A stretch of DNA of 34,447 bases from a virus, in the IMG/VR virus record IMGVR_UViG_3300026519_000039, positions 1 to 34,447 of that record; one strand, written 5' to 3'. The notes below the pieces were generated by a model. The model was not told the origin of the DNA and made no database searches. It saw only the letters and a list, made by a program, of their open reading frames with translations. Of the stretch, positions 12,454-30,561 are shown piece by piece. The translations under genes were made by a program, and so were the position numbers. Numbering within the stretch: position 1 is the first letter of the stretch; the number at the start of each line of letters is the position of its first letter.

Positions 12454-12519
12454 GCCGCCACTCCGTCATGGAAATGAACAGGCGGGCGGCCCGCAACATC
12501 GGCAGGCCGCCCGTTGGCG

Positions 12520-12789
12520 TCAGATGTTCACCACCTGCGCGATGCTGACCACGCCACCGGTAACGTCGGTTACCACCAGCAGCCGAAGTTGCGGCGTGGC
12601 ATCCACGTCCACCGTGGCGATGATCTGATCGCCCTTTTCCAGGATGTCCGCGACAGAGTTGAAGTATCCTGCCGCATTCACCGTTACCCAGTCGTCGTTC
12701 GTTACCAGCGAATACACGCCCGGGCTGGTATCGTTCGCGGCCACACCGCCATTGGCGATGCGCCTCAGATTGCCCTTTGCAAGAGCCAT
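12520..12789 (-). CDS. Small virion protein after capsid, possible decoration protein
   Basis: 89 residues with alternating beta-type composition and no Cys or membrane segment. Start at ATG 12789 with a very strong AAAGGAGG ribosome site, suggesting high expression. It lies 16 bp downstream of the major capsid gene and upstream of tail tubular protein A, the place where many phages encode a head-decoration or head-fibre protein. I do not recognise the family with certainty; the role is inferred from position, size and expression signals. Confidence 0.6.
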   Translation of the reverse strand: MALAKGNLRRIANGGVAANDTSPGVYSLVTNDDWVTVNAAGYFNSVADILEKGDQIIATVDVDATPQLRLLVVTDVTGGVVSIAQVVNI

Positions 12790-19398: not shown

Positions 19399-20078
19399 CA
19401 CGCACTCCCACCTACGGCCTGCCGATATCGCCCGATTGCCTCGGCCCGCGCCTCCGGATCGCTACCCGCCTGCCGCAGGGCGATGGCCAGATCAATGAGA
19501 TGCTCGCGCTGCTGCGGTGTGGTTGGTGGTCTGTAGTGCACCCCTAGGGCCCGCTGGAGCTCGTGCTCGACCTCGTCCAGTCGCGGCCTGCGCTGCTGCT
19601 CGGCGCGTTGTCTGGCGGCTACCTGAGCGGCCTGCTCAGCTGCCTGTCTGCGCTGCTGCAGTCGGCTGTAGAGGACGCCTGCGACGGCTGCTGCGATCTC
19701 GATCAGGTCGTGCATGTCGGCGGCGTGCTCGGTGATCTGGCTGGCGAGATCATGGAGGCCTGCGCTGCGTGCTGTCTCAGCCCACCTGGCGGCGATTGCG
19801 TCGGGCTGATAGCTGCCGCGCTCTGCGGAGGCGGCGATTGCGACGCGGAGGGTCTGCAGCGCTGCCTGGCCGGCGAGGCCGTCATCGATGGGCATCGTGC
19901 TGTCTGCCTGAGCGGCGAGGGCTGCGTCGATGGCGGGCTGCGCGACCTCTGCGAGGACGGCTGCGTCAGCCCATCCCTCTGCGGGGGCTGCGGTCTGCTC
20001 GGTGGGTGCGGCTACCTTCCTGGGGCGCTGCCTGCGCTGCTGGCGGCGACGGGTGGTCTGTCTGCGTTTGGTGGTCAT
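19398..20078 (-). CDS. Hypothetical protein, basic N-terminus and helical body
   Basis: 226 residues, starting at ATG 20078, which has a strong AGGAGGACAG ribosome site and an ATGA overlap with the upstream gene. The first 25 residues are very basic (MTTKRRQTTRRRQQRRQRPR); the middle is Ala-rich helix; QQRRQAAEQAAQVAARQRAE suggests coiled coil. No known family recognised. Upstream of TerS and coupled to it, it may be a DNA-binding or packaging accessory protein, but that is only inference. The frame is open further upstream to 20498, but nothing there supports a start. Confidence 0.68.
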   Translation of the reverse strand: MTTKRRQTTRRRQQRRQRPRKVAAPTEQTAAPAEGWADAAVLAEVAQPAIDAALAAQADSTMPIDDGLAGQAALQTLRVAIAASAERGSYQPDAIAARWAETARSAGLHDLASQITEHAADMHDLIEIAAAVAGVLYSRLQQRRQAAEQAAQVAARQRAEQQRRPRLDEVEHELQRALGVHYRPPTTPQQREHLIDLAIALRQAGSDPEARAEAIGRYRQAVGGSA

Positions 20079-20605
20079 TGTGCTGTCCTCCTGTGTCGTG
20101 GCTGTATTTCGCGCGGCGGTGGCGGGATATCGTCGTCCTGCTCTGTAATTGCGTAGCGTCGCGATCGCAGGTGCGCTGGTTCGCGCCTGATCTGCGTGGA
20201 CAGCGACCTGGCTGCTGATGCGTAGGCGCGCTCGATCTGGTTGATCCAGCGGTCTGTAGCTGGGTCGTCGCGACTGTCCTCGATCTGCGCGCATCCGCGT
20301 GAGATGGCGGCGTGATCCAGACCGATGGCTCTGGCGACCTCGCGCATGCCGACGCCGGAGATGGTGATGACGATGTAGGCCGCGAGGTGGCGCGCTCTGC
20401 GGTGATGGCGGCGCGTGGGCTGGATGATGTCGCGCCAGGTCGTTGGCTGGTGTGGCCACCTCTCGGCGACGGCTGCGGCTGCGATGTGCAGCAGCCACCT
20501 GATGCGGCGGCTGCGATCGTGGCGGCGGAGGTGGCGGAGGCGAGCGTCCGAAATGACCGAGTCGCAGAGCAGGTCGTCAAGGCTGAGATCGATGCTGCGC
20601 GGCAT
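20075..20605 (-). CDS. DnaA domain IV-like DNA-binding protein 1
   Basis: 176 residues from ATG 20605, which has AGGAG 9 nt upstream; a GTG at 20611 is the alternative. Around residues 75-115 the run RHLAAYIVITISGVGMREVA followed by IGLDHAAISRGCAQIE resembles the helix-turn-helix of DnaA domain IV (usually ...IG..fg.rdHtTV.hA...i). The acidic Asp-His pair is kept, but the signature is weaker than in the second DnaA-like protein of this genome (25646-26335). No AAA+ domain. The N- and C-termini are Arg-rich. As first gene of the minus-strand late block it may regulate late transcription; that is inference. Confidence 0.65.
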   Translation of the reverse strand: MPRSIDLSLDDLLCDSVISDARLRHLRRHDRSRRIRWLLHIAAAAVAERWPHQPTTWRDIIQPTRRHHRRARHLAAYIVITISGVGMREVARAIGLDHAAISRGCAQIEDSRDDPATDRWINQIERAYASAARSLSTQIRREPAHLRSRRYAITEQDDDIPPPPREIQPRHRRTAQ

Positions 20606-20823
20606 GTGCACATTCTCCTGCGCTGGAGTGGTTGATAGGCCGTTGCCCCTCCCCCCCTACCCCCCCTCCCCATGCACGCGCGCGCGCGCGTGTCAAGTCC
20701 GCATATCGTCGCGAAGCTGCAAGGCATTGATATTGCGCAATTTTCGCTGTTGAAAACTCTACATTGGCGCACCCCCTGCGCGGCAACCGCGACTGACAGA
20801 TTGTCGCACTCATAAACGGTGTG
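20606..20823. other. Intergenic divide with C-run and alternating CG tract
   Basis: Separates the minus-strand late block from the plus-strand early operon. It contains CCCCTCCCCCCCTACCCCCC-type runs (about 20646-20671) and an alternating CG tract (about 20676-20690), both able to form unusual DNA structure, followed by an AT-richer stretch (20725-20765). I could not identify a convincing minus-strand promoter here; a TTGACA on the minus strand at 20696-20691 has no matching -10. Confidence 0.6.
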
Positions 20824-20851
20824 TTGACATGCCAGCCCGATTGCGTATGAT
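20824..20851 (+). promoter_or_regulatory. Sigma70-type early promoter
   Basis: TTGACA (20824-20829), 16-nt spacer, TATGAT (20846-20851). The -35 is a perfect consensus and the -10 matches 5 of 6 positions. Predicted start near 20858, giving a short leader before the GTG at 20886. The palindrome at 20847-20862 overlaps the -10 and start point, so it is probably repressed by the protein that binds it. Confidence 0.85.
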
Positions 20852-20862
20852 GACCTCATCAC
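20847..20862. promoter_or_regulatory. Operator-like palindrome, site 1
   Basis: ATGATGACCTCATCAC, a TGATGA-CC-TCATCA inverted repeat over the -10 and start of the early promoter. A nearly identical site, ATGATGAGGTCATCAT, lies at the other plus-strand promoter (29571-29586). Confidence 0.6.
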
Positions 20863-20885
20863 AAAGAAAACGCGGGAGACACACC

Positions 20886-21341
20886 GTGAAGAAAACATGG
20901 AAAGCGCATGATGAATGGCGGCGGGCGCGCAAGCGTCTCCGTCGCCTATATAGGCCGGAAAGCAGGAAGGCCGCCCACGCGGCGGCCTTCCTGGACCGCG
21001 CGGGGAGCAGCATCAGCTCCCCGCGCGGAGCGGCCAGCGACATCGCGGCAGCCAACAGGCTGCTGGATGAGCTGGCGGCAGAGGAGCGCGCTGCCCGCCG
21101 CAACGTGCGGCGGCGCAGCGACAAGATTGCGCTCGCAGCTCGCGAGCGCATGGAAATGCTGCTCGCGGGCGGTTTTCATTTCCGCACCGTCGCCAAGGGG
21201 CTGGGCAGCATTTATTTATACGTCTGGCATGGCGACCGGTGGGAAAAAATCCGTTTCGGAGACCACCGGGCTGACATATACGGCGGCCATGGCAGAAACG
21301 GCAGCGGCTACAGGCTGCCAGATGAAGACAACATTATTTAA
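20886..21341 (+). CDS. Hypothetical early protein, basic
   Basis: 151 residues if read from GTG 20886, which has GGGAG 7 nt upstream and follows the early promoter by about 28 nt. The frame is also open from an ATG at 20829, but that lies in the promoter itself. N-terminal half very basic and helical (WRRARKRLRRLYR, AAEERAARRNVRRRSDKIAL); C-terminal half Gly- and aromatic-rich. No family recognised. Its DNA carries three perfect hairpins (20963-20993, 20996-21028, 21129-21149), far stronger than codon use should need. First gene of the operon, so probably an immediate-early host-takeover or regulatory protein; that is inference. Confidence 0.72.
   Translation: MKKTWKAHDEWRRARKRLRRLYRPESRKAAHAAAFLDRAGSSISSPRGAASDIAAANRLLDELAAEERAARRNVRRRSDKIALAARERMEMLLAGGFHFRTVAKGLGSIYLYVWHGDRWEKIRFGDHRADIYGGHGRNGSGYRLPDEDNII
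20963..21149. repeat. Three perfect inverted repeats inside an early gene
   Basis: 13-bp stem with 5-nt loop (20963-20993), 13-bp stem with 7-nt loop (20996-21028, arms CCGCGCGGGGAGC and GCTCCCCGCGCGG), and 8-bp stem with 5-nt loop (21129-21149, arms GCGCTCGC and GCGAGCGC). The first two stand almost side by side. They lie in frame within coding sequence, and none has a T-run. Confidence 0.95.
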
Positions 21342-21349
21342 CCACCCCT

Positions 21350-21380
21350 CTCCCCGGCGTCTGGCTGGCGCGCCGGGGAG
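21350..21380 (+). promoter_or_regulatory. Hairpin in the leader of the next early gene
   Basis: CTCCCCGGCG pairs with CGCCGGGGAG across an 11-nt loop. It starts 9 bp after the stop at 21341. The remainder of the 166-bp gap to 21508 is also rich in short GC stems. No T-run follows, so it is not a standard terminator; it may protect or process the transcript. Confidence 0.7.
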
Positions 21381-21507
21381 GGGGATCCACAGCCAGCCCC
21401 CGGAGGTGGCCGGGGAGCAGGCCACCCGCGGCGGGCACATAGCCCCCCCATCGACAGGGGCGCGCCCGGCACCCCGCCGCGCAACAAGCCGGGCGAGGAG
21501 GACAGCC

Positions 21508-22137
21508 ATGTCGGAGAAGTCGAACTTCTCCGACATCCTCGCCGCCGCGGCGAGCGGCGGCCAGCCTGAGCGTCTGTCTCAGGACTGGTTCGATCGACTC
21601 GCCGTGGAGGAGGGCGGGAAGGTGGCCGACCTCCGGTCCTTCGCCGCGGCCTATGAGTGGCCGCACGGTGATTGGCCGGAGGTGGAGGCCGCCGCGGCCC
21701 GCGCCGGCTACGGCCTGCGGAAAATCGCAGGCCGTGGCACCGGCTACGGGATCGTCATTCTGACGGCCCGTAGCAAGCGGGCCGCCGCCCTCCTCCGGCA
21801 GGGCCGTCAGCGGGCCCTCCAGCGCGAGCTGGGATGCTCAGCTGACGAGGCTGCCGCCCTCGAACCGGTCTGCCGGGCCGGCTGGGTGCGGGAGCGCGCC
21901 GACGAGATGCTGCAGCATCTCCGGTGGCTCCGCACCGCCGACCGGCAGGCCGTTGCCGCCACGCTTGATCAAGCGTGGCGCGAGTGGCGGCAGCAGGGCC
22001 GCGGCTGGGGCCGCTGCTGCCTAGAGGCGGCGCGGCTCCTGGGGCTCGACGCCCCCAGCACGCCGCGGCTCGACGCCCTGCTGCAGGCCGCCTTCCGGCT
22101 CGCCACGCGCGAGCTGGGATGGCGGCCGCCCCGGTGA
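21508..22137 (+). CDS. Hypothetical early protein encoded by a chain of hairpins
   Basis: 209 residues from ATG 21508, with AGGAGG 7 nt upstream. Composition is helical and Ala/Arg/Leu-rich; no family recognised. The striking property is the DNA: an 11-bp perfect hairpin with a 3-nt loop begins at the G of the start codon (21510-21534); 9-bp arms at 21711-21734; 7-bp arms at 21744-21773; 10-bp arms at 21760-21810; an 18-bp palindrome at 21904-21921; and a 22-bp palindrome at 21958-21979. The hairpin at the start codon could hide or expose translation initiation. High GC alone makes short stems common, but not this many stems of 8 bp or more. Product function unknown. Confidence 0.72.
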   Translation: MSEKSNFSDILAAAASGGQPERLSQDWFDRLAVEEGGKVADLRSFAAAYEWPHGDWPEVEAAAARAGYGLRKIAGRGTGYGIVILTARSKRAAALLRQGRQRALQRELGCSADEAAALEPVCRAGWVRERADEMLQHLRWLRTADRQAVAATLDQAWREWRQQGRGWGRCCLEAARLLGLDAPSTPRLDALLQAAFRLATRELGWRPPR

Positions 22138-22156
22138 GGGTGTCGGAGCCACCGGC

Positions 22157-22258
22157 TGCCCCCGCCCCCTGCTAGCGAAGTAGGGGGGCTACACGCCCCC
22201 TGAAGCGGCCGGGGGCGGGGGCACAAGACCGGGAGCGGACAGGAAACCGTCCGCTCCC
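22157..22258 (+). ncRNA. Highly structured noncoding block before terminator
   Basis: TGCCCCCGCCCC (22157-22168) pairs with GGGGCGGGGGCA (22212-22223), enclosing two smaller GC stems, so a branched fold is possible. It is followed by a 10-bp hairpin, GGGAGCGGAC/GTCCGCTCCC (22231-22258), and then the terminator. No reading frame of note. It could be a 3' end that stabilises the early mRNA or a separate small RNA released by processing; no promoter of its own seen. Function unknown. Confidence 0.5.
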
Positions 22259-22270
22259 AAATGACGGGGA

Positions 22271-22318
22271 AAGCCCCGTCGCCCTGGACTGATGTCTGGG
22301 GCGGCGGGGCTTTTTTTT
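22271..22318 (+). terminator. Rho-independent terminator
   Basis: AAGCCCCGTCGCCC (from 22271) pairs with GGGGCGGCGGGGCTT, with a loop around GGACTGATGTCT, followed by eight T (22311-22318). A strong terminator that would end most transcripts from the early promoter before the 319-residue gene. Confidence 0.95.
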
Positions 22319-22381
22319 GCGCGCTGCTGCATCGGGGCCAGCGGCGCAGCGAAGTCAACCCGCCCCGTAGGAGGCAAGACC

Positions 22382-23341
22382 ATGACCGTCCTCCCCCTCT
22401 ACACCGCCCTGCGGGCCGGATGCCGCGGCTCCGGCCTGCTGTGCACCTGGCCCGATGCCTGCGAGGCGGGCATAGAGGCCTACCAAAATCCGCCCATCAC
22501 GGAGCGGCTGGCCACCGATGCCGCCAGCGCGTCCTGCAGGGCGCGGGATGCGCTGACGGCATTCCGTGAGGCCGTCGGCGTATTCCTGCCGCGCGCGGTA
22601 TGGCGGCAGGCGCTGGAGTGGCGCAGGGCTGACGAGGCATCCATCCGCGCGCTGATGACGCGCGAGGCGCTCTCTCCCCCCATGCGCGCGCAGCCCACGC
22701 ACCTGCTGCGCGCTGCCACGGCAGACTGGGCAGGGTATCAGACAGGCCCGCTGACGCCCGCTGAAATCGACGCGCTGGGCGGCTGGTTGCACGACACGTC
22801 CTGGTGGGTGCTCTATGACAACGGCCACGCATACTGGCTGGCCTACGCAAACGCCATGTCGCCGAGCGGCGTCATTTCGCGACTGCGCGACGCCATCGGC
22901 CTGCCGGTGCTGGACTGGCTGGATGGACGTGCGGACGAGCCGCTCACAGTCGAGGTCGGCGGCTACACCCACCGCGTCCACGGCCTGGACGAGGCCGCCC
23001 GCGTGCTGCTCGGCGAGTGGCCGCACATCGCCGACGTGCGCGCGGCTGACGACGTCATCGTGCGCACGCAGGACGGCATCGATCGCACCGCAGAGGCATG
23101 GCGGCGATACGGCAGGCTGGCCGCCGAGCGCATCGTCATCGAGGAGGATGCGGACGGCGAGCTGATCCCGTCCGACGCCACAATAGATGGATGGGCGGCA
23201 GAGACGGAGGCCCACGATGTCGCGTGGGTGGCATTCTGCCGGCACATAGACGAGCGCCTGGAGGCCGCCGCTTCCGGCCATGAGGACTGGGTGCGCTGTG
23301 GCAGGGACCCGGTCATATACTACGGGGCACCGCCCCGGTAG
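22382..23341 (+). CDS. Hypothetical early protein, 319 residues
   Basis: ATG 22382 follows TAGGAGGCAAGACC, a good ribosome site. Balanced globular composition with many Trp, Ala and Asp; contains GGWLHDTSWWVLYDNGHAYW and, near the C-terminus, SGHEDWVRCGRDP. No known motif or membrane segment recognised. It is the largest gene of the plus-strand early operon and sits 64 bp after a strong terminator, so it depends on read-through or an unseen promoter. A host-takeover or anti-defence role is possible from position only. Confidence 0.72.
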   Translation: MTVLPLYTALRAGCRGSGLLCTWPDACEAGIEAYQNPPITERLATDAASASCRARDALTAFREAVGVFLPRAVWRQALEWRRADEASIRALMTREALSPPMRAQPTHLLRAATADWAGYQTGPLTPAEIDALGGWLHDTSWWVLYDNGHAYWLAYANAMSPSGVISRLRDAIGLPVLDWLDGRADEPLTVEVGGYTHRVHGLDEAARVLLGEWPHIADVRAADDVIVRTQDGIDRTAEAWRRYGRLAAERIVIEEDADGELIPSDATIDGWAAETEAHDVAWVAFCRHIDERLEAAASGHEDWVRCGRDPVIYYGAPPR

Positions 23342-24107: not shown

Positions 24108-24561
24108 TCTGCCATCCGTTGATGCGCACCTCCGCATCATCTGGAAGCTGCGCGCGCAACACTGCGTATTTGAGTTCCGACAGCGGCTCCAGGGCGACCC
24201 CTCTGGAGCCGCTGCTCTTGTAGTCCTCATACACAAGAACGCCGTCGCGCAAGTCGCGATACACGAAATCCACCGCCAGCACATACGGCCTTCCGCTCAC
24301 GAGATGCCGCAGATAGCCGTTCGCACCGCGCAGACGCACGCGCACCTGCCGACGCAGCTCGGCAATCTCTCCGGCCTGCTCCAGCAGCCGCAGCTCGCGC
24401 CAGCGCTTATGCTCGCCCTTGCTGGCGAAGTGCTCCATCACCTCGCCACACGCCGGGCATCGCTTTTTCGGAGGCTTGGCGCTTACATGATGCCCGCACA
24501 CGCAAGCCCAGAAGCGCCGCGCATTGCGGAAGGTGCTATCATATCTCTTGAGCTTGCGCAT
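24097..24561 (-). CDS. DUF1064-like PD-(D/E)XK nuclease with zinc ribbon
   Basis: 154 residues from ATG 24561 (TGATG coupling to the upstream gene). N-terminal zinc ribbon CVCGHH...RCPACGE at about residues 21-42, then KRWRELRLLEQAGEIAELRR, which is the family opening, and YVLAVDFVYRD...VLVYEDYKSS, giving the D and ExK of the nuclease core. Members are phage Holliday-junction-type or recombination nucleases. Last gene of the minus-strand replication operon, with SSB upstream, fitting a role in resolving or trimming recombination intermediates. The N-terminal zinc ribbon is an addition to the usual core. Confidence 0.78.
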   Translation of the reverse strand: MRKLKRYDSTFRNARRFWACVCGHHVSAKPPKKRCPACGEVMEHFASKGEHKRWRELRLLEQAGEIAELRRQVRVRLRGANGYLRHLVSGRPYVLAVDFVYRDLRDGVLVYEDYKSSGSRGVALEPLSELKYAVLRAQLPDDAEVRINGWQIKT

Positions 24562-26335: not shown

Positions 26336-27390
26336 CACACCTCCTCCCATTGAATGCCAATCTCACGCGCCACGCCCTGCGAGAGCATGACCACCATACC
26401 TCCGCGCGTCGCGCTCTCGGAAACGCCGCCATTGCGCGATCCCTTTCTCAGCAGCGCATTCCACCGCGCTGCATCTGCTTCCTTGAAGCTCTGCACCTGA
26501 TGCCATGCATCCTGATGGTCGCGCTCGAAGACGAAAACAGAACCACCCTTGTTTGCCCGTGGGAGCACCGCTGATGCGCCTTGCGGTTCTTCTGAGGCCA
26601 TACAAGCCTGCTTCCCTTTCGGAGTCACAGGGACGGCTGAAAATCGCTCTGCGAACCAGTCTGCGTTGAAGCCCTGCCAGGAATTGCCGATCATCAGCTC
26701 GACAGCATCTGTGCGATTGCTCTTCGGGATGCGCGCGAATTCGCGTGCTAGCAATTCCGCTGCTCGCTCCGTGAGCGGTTTTTTCATCTGTTGCCGATGC
26801 TCCCAGACGGCTTCGGCGTCTTCCTTGCTCAGGACGGTAGCCAGGATGTCGATGCAACGCTGCTTACGCGATGTGCGTTTCGATTTGTTGGCAGGTCGCT
26901 GCTCTTCCAGGACAAGGGTGCATGAAGGCGCGTCAGCGCCGTGGCGCGCTTGCGCGCCCTCTCTTGTTGTAGTCTCTGTCGTAATCTCTGTTGTAGTCTC
27001 TGTATTGTTTCCGCCATTTGGGCAGATTCGATTCTGCCCTTTTGGCGGATTCAATTCTGCCCTTTGGGCAGATTTGATTTGGCCAATAAGGGCGTTGTTG
27101 ATAGCATCGATGTGCACGGTGAAATGCCTGGTGGGCGGCACACCTTTCACGGCAACGTCAATGAATCCAGCCTCCTTCAGCGCCTTGATGGCCGTGCGTT
27201 GCTCCTTCTCAGTGAGGCTTGTTTCAGCCTCCATCTCATGGACTGTCTTGTAGATGGATTCTCCGTTCCTCCTGTCCCACCAGTAGAGCAATTGCTGAAG
27301 CAGGATTGCTGCTGTGATGGAGCCGGTGATTTTGCGCAATGCCGGATAGAACGCGATGGGGCGCTCTGAAAGCAGGATGTGGAGTTTCAT
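26335..27390 (-). CDS. Phage replication protein, O-like, with winged helix
   Basis: 351 residues from ATG 27390 (AAGGAGGG at 7 nt). An in-frame ATG at 27462, with its own GGAGG at 6 nt, would give 375 residues. N-terminal 100 residues form a winged-helix domain (RKITGSITAAILLQQLLYWW, TEKEQRTAIKALKEAGFIDV). A middle linker encodes tandem repeats (GQNRICPNGG, then a TE/TT-rich run) that coincide with DNA iterons at 26967-27084. The C-terminal part is Gln/Arg-rich and helical. By analogy with lambda O, the protein binds iterons within its own gene to start theta replication using host enzymes. No helicase motif is seen. Confidence 0.82.
   Translation of the reverse strand: MKLHILLSERPIAFYPALRKITGSITAAILLQQLLYWWDRRNGESIYKTVHEMEAETSLTEKEQRTAIKALKEAGFIDVAVKGVPPTRHFTVHIDAINNALIGQIKSAQRAELNPPKGQNRICPNGGNNTETTTEITTETTTREGAQARHGADAPSCTLVLEEQRPANKSKRTSRKQRCIDILATVLSKEDAEAVWEHRQQMKKPLTERAAELLAREFARIPKSNRTDAVELMIGNSWQGFNADWFAERFSAVPVTPKGKQACMASEEPQGASAVLPRANKGGSVFVFERDHQDAWHQVQSFKEADAARWNALLRKGSRNGGVSESATRGGMVVMLSQGVAREIGIQWEEV
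26967..27084. repeat. Iterons inside the replication gene, likely origin
   Basis: Three adjacent 22-23-bp units (27017-27039, 27040-27062, 27063-27084). The first is TTT followed by GGGCAGA-TTCGAT-TCTGCCC, a perfect 7-bp inverted repeat; the other two are close variants. Beside them are three 12-bp units TTGTAGTCTCTG (26967-26978, 26979-26990, 26991-27002), a T-rich stretch that may unwind. Position inside an O-like gene matches the lambda-type origin arrangement. Confidence 0.75.
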
Positions 27391-27558
27391 CAAAAAACCC
27401 TCCTTCATGGGGTTGACGGAGGGCGGTGCAGGCGTGTATCTGAGTGCAGACACACGGCACATCCAGACCCTCCGCCGTGGGTTTTGCCGGTCAGGGTCGC
27501 TCTCATTCCCCTGACCGGCATTTTGTTTGCGGCATCTCCGCTACGCAGCCATGCCGCA
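27391..27558 (-). promoter_or_regulatory. Structured leader of the replication gene
   Basis: 168 bp between the Lar-like gene and the replication start at 27390. A 12-bp perfect hairpin (arms 27485-27496 and 27509-27520, core GCCGGTCAGGG/CCCTGACCGGC, 12-nt loop) is followed on the minus strand by an A-run, not a T-run, so it is not a terminator there. Downstream of it is a GGAGG-preceded ATG (27462) in frame with the replication protein. It probably controls translation or mRNA stability. Confidence 0.55.
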
Positions 27559-29518: not shown

Positions 29519-29546
29519 TTGACATATTAAACACGGCAGCTATTGT
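29519..29546 (+). promoter_or_regulatory. Sigma70-type promoter for the recombination operon
   Basis: TTGACA (29519-29524), 16-nt spacer, TATTGT (29541-29546): perfect -35 and 4 of 6 in -10. Predicted start near 29553, about 34 nt before the RecE-like ATG. Overlaps the minus-strand promoter and the GCTAT-TGT-ATAGC palindrome (29539-29551). Confidence 0.72.
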
Positions 29547-29570: not shown

Positions 29571-29586
29571 ATGATGAGGTCATCAT
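29571..29586. promoter_or_regulatory. Operator-like palindrome, site 2
   Basis: ATGATGA-GG-TCATCAT, a perfect 7-bp inverted repeat ending at the base before the RecE-like ATG and covering its ribosome site. Nearly the same palindrome lies over the other early promoter at 20847-20862. Bound protein would block elongation or initiation; as RNA it would also form a weak hairpin over AGGT. Confidence 0.62.
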
Positions 29587-30561
29587 ATGAAGACTGGCAT
29601 ATACATCGGCCTGCCAGAAAATGAGTATCACGAGCAGCGCGACTGGCTCGGCTCCACCGACCTGAAGGCGCTCTACGAAGACCCGGTGGAGTGGCAGTGG
29701 CGGCGTCTGAATGAGCCGCGTGAGGACACGCGCGCGCTTGTGTGGGGGCAGGCGCTTCACAAGCGCGCACTGGAGGGACATGACGCGGCCATGGAATGGC
29801 TGCGTGCGCATCCGGAGAAGCTGCGCCTGCTGCTGAGTGGGCCGGAGATGACAGACGCGCTGACACGTATCGGCGTGAAGGACAATATCCCGCGCAACCT
29901 TGATGAGCGCGCGATGGTGCTGGCATCCTCGGCGCGCTTCGACGACATCCTGCCTGACATCGCCAAGGCGGTGGAGTGGATGCATGCAGACCCAACCATA
30001 TCAGCCGTGATGGGAGACGGGCACCAGTTCATGGGTGGCCTGCCTGAGGTGTCCGTGTTCGCCAGGATCAACGGCGTGCCGCGCAAGGCGCGGTTCGACT
30101 GGCTCGCGCCGCACGCCATATTCGACCTCAAGAGCTTCAGCCTGCAGCTCACCAGCAATCCACACCGCGCGGCCATCAAGGCCATCGCCAATCTCCGCTA
30201 TGACATTCAGGCTGCCGCCTACATCGAGGCATGGCATGCCGCCAAGAAGCTGCTGAAGCGCGGCCTCGTGCACGGCGGCACCAAGGAGCAGCGCGAGTTT
30301 CTCGCCGAGTGCTTCAAGCGCCGCGCGCCGCTGTGGGTTTGGATTTTCGTCAAGTCGCAGGGCGCGCCGCAGCCGCTCGTGCTGACTATGAAGAGCGGTG
30401 GCGAGGTGGTGCGTCAGGCCCGCGCCGCCGTGCACAAGGCGTGCGAGAATTACAGGACGTTCAGCGAGACGTTCGGCATCGACAAGGAATGGCATCCGCG
30501 TCATGCGCCGATGGAGGTAACGCATGACGTGCTGCCGGCATGGATGGGATACAACGAATGA
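29587..30561 (+). CDS. RecE-like exonuclease (PD-(D/E)XK)
   Basis: 324 residues. Follows the phage RecE/exodeoxyribonuclease VIII pattern: DWLGSTDLKAL opening, LVWGQALHKRALEG (the conserved G...H), then SVFARINGVPRKARFDWLAP and AIFDLKSF, giving the D...DxK catalytic core, and YDIQAAAYIEAW, the usual Q-x3-Y helix. It degrades the 5' strand of duplex ends, leaving single strands for the RecT protein encoded 11 bp downstream. ATG 29587 follows GAGGT. First gene of the operon. Confidence 0.9.
   Translation: MKTGIYIGLPENEYHEQRDWLGSTDLKALYEDPVEWQWRRLNEPREDTRALVWGQALHKRALEGHDAAMEWLRAHPEKLRLLLSGPEMTDALTRIGVKDNIPRNLDERAMVLASSARFDDILPDIAKAVEWMHADPTISAVMGDGHQFMGGLPEVSVFARINGVPRKARFDWLAPHAIFDLKSFSLQLTSNPHRAAIKAIANLRYDIQAAAYIEAWHAAKKLLKRGLVHGGTKEQREFLAECFKRRAPLWVWIFVKSQGAPQPLVLTMKSGGEVVRQARAAVHKACENYRTFSETFGIDKEWHPRHAPMEVTHDVLPAWMGYNE

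What the first reader, a model, noticed from the sequence alone, without database searches (positions are those of the whole stretch)
20886..22137. Early genes whose coding DNA is a chain of perfect hairpins
Two adjacent early genes contain 13-, 13-, 11-, 10-, 9- and 8-bp perfect stems plus 18- and 22-bp palindromes (20963-20993, 20996-21028, 21129-21149, 21510-21534, 21711-21734, 21760-21810, 21904-21921, 21958-21979). High GC explains short stems but hardly this number of stems of 8 bp or more. The structure must be selected in the RNA or DNA, beyond protein coding: mRNA protection, translation control, double-stranded RNA decoy, or binding sites.
Basis: seen in the sequence. Interest (0 to 1): 0.72.

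Follow-up and report, generated by a model that had tools for sequence, protein, structure and literature searches.

The report
Hyper-folded early messenger RNA of phage
Two small early genes of an uncultivated DNA phage are written with codons that make their messenger RNA fold far more tightly than chance, more than an RNA-phage genome measured the same way; why is unknown, though the second gene's start signal is locked inside a hairpin.

Summary
Every stem listed exists, four being 1-2 bp longer than stated. The block coincides with one transcription unit: promoter 20824-20851, genes g1 (20886-21341) and g2 (21508-22137), intrinsic terminator 22270-22321. Both genes carry a coding signature. 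Against shuffles keeping protein, codon use and dinucleotides, folding z is -6.1 (g1) and -14.1 (g2); 11 other window genes lie between +0.7 and -3.8. Excess stability (12.7 and 17.0 kcal/mol per 100 nt) is about twice that of MS2 coding RNA (6.6-7.8); 18 of 18 genes of two GC-rich phages show none to speak of. It is the strongest of 26,256 runs of 1.36 kb from 110 of 171 records. The excess is larger on the sense strand, pointing to RNA rather than DNA. g2's ribosome-binding site and start codon lie in a long hairpin. No relative of g1 or g2 was found, so compensatory change could not be tested. Best reading: synonymous codons selected to fold a repressor-controlled early mRNA, gating g2 and shielding the RNA. 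The mechanism is inferred.

The parts
20824..20851 (+). sigma-70-type promoter TTGACA-16-TATGAT (11 of 12)
20848..20861 (.). operator palindrome TGATGACCTCATCA, same site as 29572-29585
20886..21341 (+). g1, 151 aa, GTG start, pI 10.8, no known family
   Evidence: folding z -6.1
20963..20993 (+). hairpin, 13 bp, loop 5
20996..21028 (+). hairpin, 13 bp, loop 7, 2 nt after the previous one
21128..21150 (+). hairpin, 9 bp, loop 5
21350..21380 (+). hairpin, 10 bp, loop 11, in the spacer between the genes
21492..21543 (+). extended hairpin that pairs the Shine-Dalgarno (AGGAGG 21496-21501) and start codon of g2; core 21508-21536, 13 bp, loop 3
   Evidence: opening the start region costs 25.5 kcal/mol
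21508..22137 (+). g2, 209 aa, no known family
   Evidence: folding z -14.1
21710..21735 (+). hairpin, 10 bp, loop 6
21760..21810 (+). hairpin, 10 bp, loop 31
21866..21952 (+). 87-bp imperfect inverted repeat (79% identical to its own reverse complement) around the 18-nt palindrome 21904-21921
21957..21980 (+). 24-nt perfect palindrome
22138..22262 (+). 3' untranslated region with strong hairpins (among them 22231-22258, 10 bp); z -6.9
22270..22321 (+). intrinsic terminator, 20-pair stem followed by a T-run

Best explanation
Shown by computation: a 1.46-kb unit from promoter to terminator, with two protein-coding genes whose synonymous codons give an RNA far more folded than chance, more so in the sense than in the antisense strand, with the first ~100 nt of the transcript (g1 start) not significantly structured and the g2 start closed. 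Inferred: selection acts on the mRNA. The fold most likely does two jobs. It gates translation of g2, whose Shine-Dalgarno and AUG are paired, so that g2 is made little, or only after a trigger such as the basic g1 protein or an unwinding ribosome. And it compacts the gene bodies and the 3' end, shielding the early transcript from single-strand nucleases and Rho and slowing ribosomes. A repressor shared with the exo/RecT operon probably controls the unit.
For: Promoter, terminator and folded block coincide. Folding z against protein- and codon-preserving shuffles -9.9/-11.3, with dinucleotides also kept -6.1/-14.1. Sense minus antisense excess z -4.0 (g2) and -2.5 (g1), 12 other genes -2.0 to +1.3; sense z stronger in 5 of 5 coding pieces. 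18 G-U pairs in the sense fold of g2 against 5 in the antisense. Opening cost at the g2 start 25.5 kcal/mol against 6.7-14.7 at five other starts. 5' 103 nt z -1.8. Shared operator.
Against: No relatives, so no covariation. The antisense strand is strongly folded too (z -5.1 and -9.3). Two palindromes are loop-free, as DNA sites would be. The spacer between the genes is only weakly folded (z -2.3), which does not fit a need for the whole transcript to be folded. A start gate needs one hairpin, not 1.4 kb of them. No transcript, protein or decay data.
Confidence: 0.45

Rival explanations
1. DNA-level palindromes: a mutational process (template switching at quasi-palindromes) or sites for a DNA-binding protein made the inverted repeats, and RNA folding is a by-product.
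For: Stems are perfect and both strands fold strongly; two palindromes have no loop; an 87-bp imperfect palindrome surrounds one of them.
Against: Sense-strand excess in g1 and g2 and in 5 of 5 coding pieces; restriction to one transcription unit; stem sequences share no common motif that a protein could read (my inspection of the sequences); little direct repetition.
Confidence: 0.2
2. Dual-function RNA: the folded transcript is itself a working RNA (decoy, scaffold or regulator) that also carries two reading frames.
For: Folding above the level of MS2 coding RNA; own promoter and terminator; folded 3' untranslated region.
Against: Both frames have coding signatures; the spacer is weakly folded; no Rfam family at gathering score and only chance-level matches below it.
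Confidence: 0.15
3. RNA antitermination: the tandem hairpins 20963-21028 act like HK022 put RNA, or with g1 like N and nut, to carry polymerase through the terminator at 22270 into g3 and beyond.
For: Two adjacent stem-loops (66 nt) about 105 nt after the inferred transcript start; a strong terminator separates g2 from g3; g1 is basic with an arginine-rich N-terminus.
Against: One copy only in the window, while HK022 has putL and putR (PMC9378689, passages); perfect stems without put's bulges; it leaves the other kilobase of structure unexplained.
Confidence: 0.1
4. High G+C content alone makes the stems.
For: The unit is among the GC-richest parts of the window.
Against: All nulls keep composition; GC-rich Mx8 and BcepC6B genes, 18 of 18, lie between z +1.0 and -2.1.
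Confidence: 0.01

Closest known systems
Folded coding RNA of RNA phages (MS2, Fiersviridae) and genome-scale ordered RNA structure of RNA viruses
   Same: Protein-coding RNA far more folded than its codons require; a paired start region of a downstream gene (that MS2 controls its replicase start in this way is recalled, not from a call).
   Different: Here it is one operon of a DNA phage; excess about twice that of MS2; sense strand more folded than antisense, while MS2 shows about the same level on both.
Large ornate phage and bacterial RNAs (GOLLD, ROOL, OLE)
   Same: Long, strongly folded RNA; GOLLD and ROOL occur in phage genomes (PMC7567579, passages).
   Different: Those are noncoding with conserved folds; this RNA carries two coding frames and has no Rfam match at gathering score.
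HK022 put RNA
   Same: Two adjacent stem-loops of about 70 nt downstream of an early promoter.
   Different: One copy, perfect stems, inside a coding gene, part of a much longer folded block.
Ordinary selection on mRNA folding in coding regions
   Same: Synonymous codons shape local folding in most phyla (PMC7063772, abstract).
   Different: Far beyond the level of 18 of 18 genes of two GC-rich phages; the g2 start is closed, whereas dsDNA viruses often have open starts (PMC3072339, abstract).

Membership tests
Coding RNA under selection for global folding (as in MS2) | Folding beyond protein-, codon- and dinucleotide-preserving shuffles | tested here: met
   z -6.1 and -14.1
Coding RNA under selection for global folding (as in MS2) | Stems conserved by compensatory changes | not testable with these tools
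   no relatives of g1 or g2 found
Coding RNA under selection for global folding (as in MS2) | Selection on RNA, not DNA | tested here: inconclusive
   sense excess z -4.0 and -2.5, but the antisense is strongly folded too
GOLLD / ROOL / OLE and other Rfam families | Match to the covariance model at gathering score | tested here: not met
   0 matches in the window
GOLLD / ROOL / OLE and other Rfam families | Noncoding | tested here: not met
   coding signature z 4.6 and 6.1
HK022 put RNA | Two copies, putL and putR, of similar sequence after the two early promoters | tested here: not met
   no second tandem pair among the stems of at least 9 bp in the window
HK022 put RNA | Suppression of termination without a phage protein | not testable with these tools
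   needs transcription assays
lambda N / nut antitermination | N-like protein and conserved boxA/boxB | not tested
   g1 has no family match; boxA/boxB were not searched for

The most novel reading that the evidence does not exclude
The transcript is a functional folded RNA that also encodes two proteins: a protein-coding counterpart of the ornate phage RNAs, possibly descended from an RNA element captured by a DNA phage, folded more tightly than an RNA-phage genome so that the RNA itself survives in and acts on the infected cell.
Probability: 0.1. Interest if true: 0.88.

Novelty: new variant of a known kind. Interest (0 to 1): 0.62.

Why it matters
Strong folding of coding RNA is associated with RNA viruses. 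Finding it in one early operon of a DNA phage, at about twice the MS2 level and unmatched in the other records scanned, gives a natural test of what heavy mRNA folding buys: translation gating, RNA survival, escape from Rho, or an RNA function of its own. It can be tested on a 1.5-kb fragment in a laboratory strain.

Tried and rejected
Relatives of g2: viral contigs, phage records by tblastn at E 1, genome contigs, plasmids: none. Relatives of g1: viral contigs: none; g1 was not searched in the phage, plasmid or genome collections. g3: viral contigs and phages: none. g1, g2, g3 and two further ORFs by tblastn at E 0.5 against 171 held loci: none.

Terminase relatives were looked at for a similar block. 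L013 showed a few moderate windows near its terminase but no dense stems, and was dropped. L063 and L049 have 5 stems in 1.4 kb, not followed.

Eight contigs with the same promoter-operator geometry have no folded unit downstream: in 8 of 8 no 240-nt window of the next 1.6 kb was below -2.4 on the regression scale; L182 has 4 stems of at least 9 bp there.

The regulator at 20075-20611 gave no viral relative. Structure predictions without alignments: g1 pLDDT 76, g2 pLDDT 67; PDB fold searches gave no hit at E 0.001, so no function is assigned. A winged-helix look of g2 residues 25-85 is my reading of the predicted secondary structure, not a match.

In one search the third gene was mis-framed (3 nt); that row is void and was redone. 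In one search the shuffles changed only 10-22% of bases, a conservative null. One search's share of excess lost on reassigning synonyms does not by itself separate RNA selection from a mutational origin. Codon-phase counts of the predicted pairs gave no clear pattern in g2 and a mild bias in g1.

Rows left out: self-match loci L001-L005 were excluded; near-duplicate L007 was also excluded. The scan covered 110 of 171 records before its time limit, larger ones first, and its regression was fitted on data that include this window.

Full report
What was checked. The window is a 34,447-base virus record with a podovirus-like gene set: terminase, portal, head, tail and head-tail adaptor genes on the minus strand, and SSB, O-like replication, exonuclease, RecT, methyltransferase and endolysin genes to the right. 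The stems sit in g1 (20886-21341) and g2 (21508-22137), and between and after them.

It is one transcription unit. A near-consensus promoter lies at 20824-20851 and a 20-pair terminator with a T-run at 22270-22321. Folding z scores in 240-nt windows on the plus strand are near background before the promoter, -2.6 to -13.0 inside, -3.7 in the window that overlaps the terminator and -2.2 in the next. In finer pieces: 20858-20960 z -1.8; g1 halves -10.9 and -4.6; spacer -2.3; g2 thirds -9.3, -4.3 and -6.0; 3' untranslated region -6.9; after the terminator -2.7. The excess therefore tracks the gene bodies and the 3' end, not the spacer or the first 100 nt.

The genes are real. Codon log-likelihood trained on eight structural genes favours the proposed frame of g1 and of g2 over the other five, z 4.6 and 6.1 against dinucleotide shuffles. 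The frame of g2 is open upstream as well (409 codons), but AGGAGG stands 6 nt before ATG 21508, so I start g2 there.

It is not composition. Synonymous shuffles give z -9.9 and -11.3; shuffles that also keep dinucleotides give -6.1 and -14.1. The same test on 11 other window genes gives +0.7 to -3.8, and on the next gene downstream, g3 (22382-23341), -4.4. In 12 Mx8 and 6 BcepC6B genes z runs from +1.0 to -2.1. MS2 coding segments, five of five, give -5.3 to -8.4 and 6.6-7.8 kcal/mol per 100 nt of excess; g1 and g2 give 12.7 and 17.0. In a composition-regressed scan of 110 of 171 records, the best of 26,256 runs of 1.36 kb is this unit at -5.43 (run sd 0.50); the next is -2.83, in L092. MS2's best run on that scale is -2.69 sense and -2.82 antisense. 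The excess per 100 nt depends partly on G+C content, but the z and regression scales rank alike.

RNA or DNA. The sense strand is more over-folded than the antisense: difference against its own null z -4.0 in g2 and -2.5 in g1; the 12 other genes tested lie between -2.0 and +1.3. Sense z is the stronger in five of five coding pieces, and g2's sense fold has 18 G-U pairs against 5 in the antisense. Against this, the antisense strand is itself strongly folded, two palindromes are loop-free, and the terminase gene shows a large sense/antisense G-U difference too, which I did not test with shuffles. I take RNA as likelier, not as proven.

How it may work. The Shine-Dalgarno and AUG of g2 lie in an extended hairpin (21492-21543); holding the start region open costs 25.5 kcal/mol, against 14.2 for g1, 8.6 for g3 and 6.7-14.7 for three other starts. 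Coupling to translation of g1 is unlikely across 166 nt (inference). Zhou and Wilke (PMC3072339, abstract) find reduced structure near starts to be common in dsDNA viruses, so g2 runs against the trend. g1 is very basic (pI 10.8) with a predicted helical, arginine-rich N-terminus; that it binds the hairpins is a guess. Shielding of the transcript from nucleases or Rho is an inference from general knowledge.

Control. The exact palindrome TGATGA-NN-TCATCA occurs twice in the window: at this promoter (20848-20861) and at 29572-29585, between a promoter-like site (29519-29546) and the exo gene start at 29587. With up to 2 mismatches there are 7 sites against 1.1 expected. One repressor probably controls both operons; weak CII-like and related matches lie in the minus-strand ORF 20075-20611. 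Eight other IMG/VR contigs carry the same promoter-operator arrangement and none has a folded unit after it.

Comparison and novelty. It works like the folded coding RNA of RNA phages but is not shown to be related to it. It is not GOLLD, ROOL or OLE by Rfam (only chance-level matches at lower threshold), nor put RNA by copy number. Literature searches (listings; passages or abstracts of five papers) showed no report of a DNA-phage operon folded to this degree; most subscription papers are not held, so this is weak evidence of absence. Novelty: new variant of a known kind. The lack of any relative is the main limit.

Noticed in passing
20848-20861 and 29572-29585: The same 14-bp palindrome TGATGA-NN-TCATCA at two early promoters, a likely repressor operator.
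   Followed up: partly
L178-L185: Eight other viral contigs carry TTGACA, a 14-18 nt gap and TATGATGANNTCATCA: the promoter-operator module recurs in phages of quite different G+C content without the folded unit.
   Followed up: partly
26965-27084: Three 23-bp-spaced and three 12-bp-spaced direct repeats inside the O-like replication gene: a lambda-like origin, which probably explains the second folding peak at 26881-27120.
   Followed up: partly
12481-12720: Minus-strand folding peak, z -6.7, with a 12-bp near-perfect inverted repeat at 12483-12513, between two virion genes.
   Followed up: no
24181-24214 and 27485-27520: Two further isolated 12-bp perfect stems outside the unit.
   Followed up: no
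22382-23341: g3, directly after the terminator, 319 aa, acidic, no relatives, is itself mildly over-folded (z -4.4).
   Followed up: partly
L092, 961-2400: AT-rich stems of 16 and 17 bp in a Cloacimonadota contig, the second strongest folded run of the scan.
   Followed up: no
L063, 8734-10133: Five perfect stems of 9-12 bp shortly before a terminase gene in an Albimonas genome.
   Followed up: no
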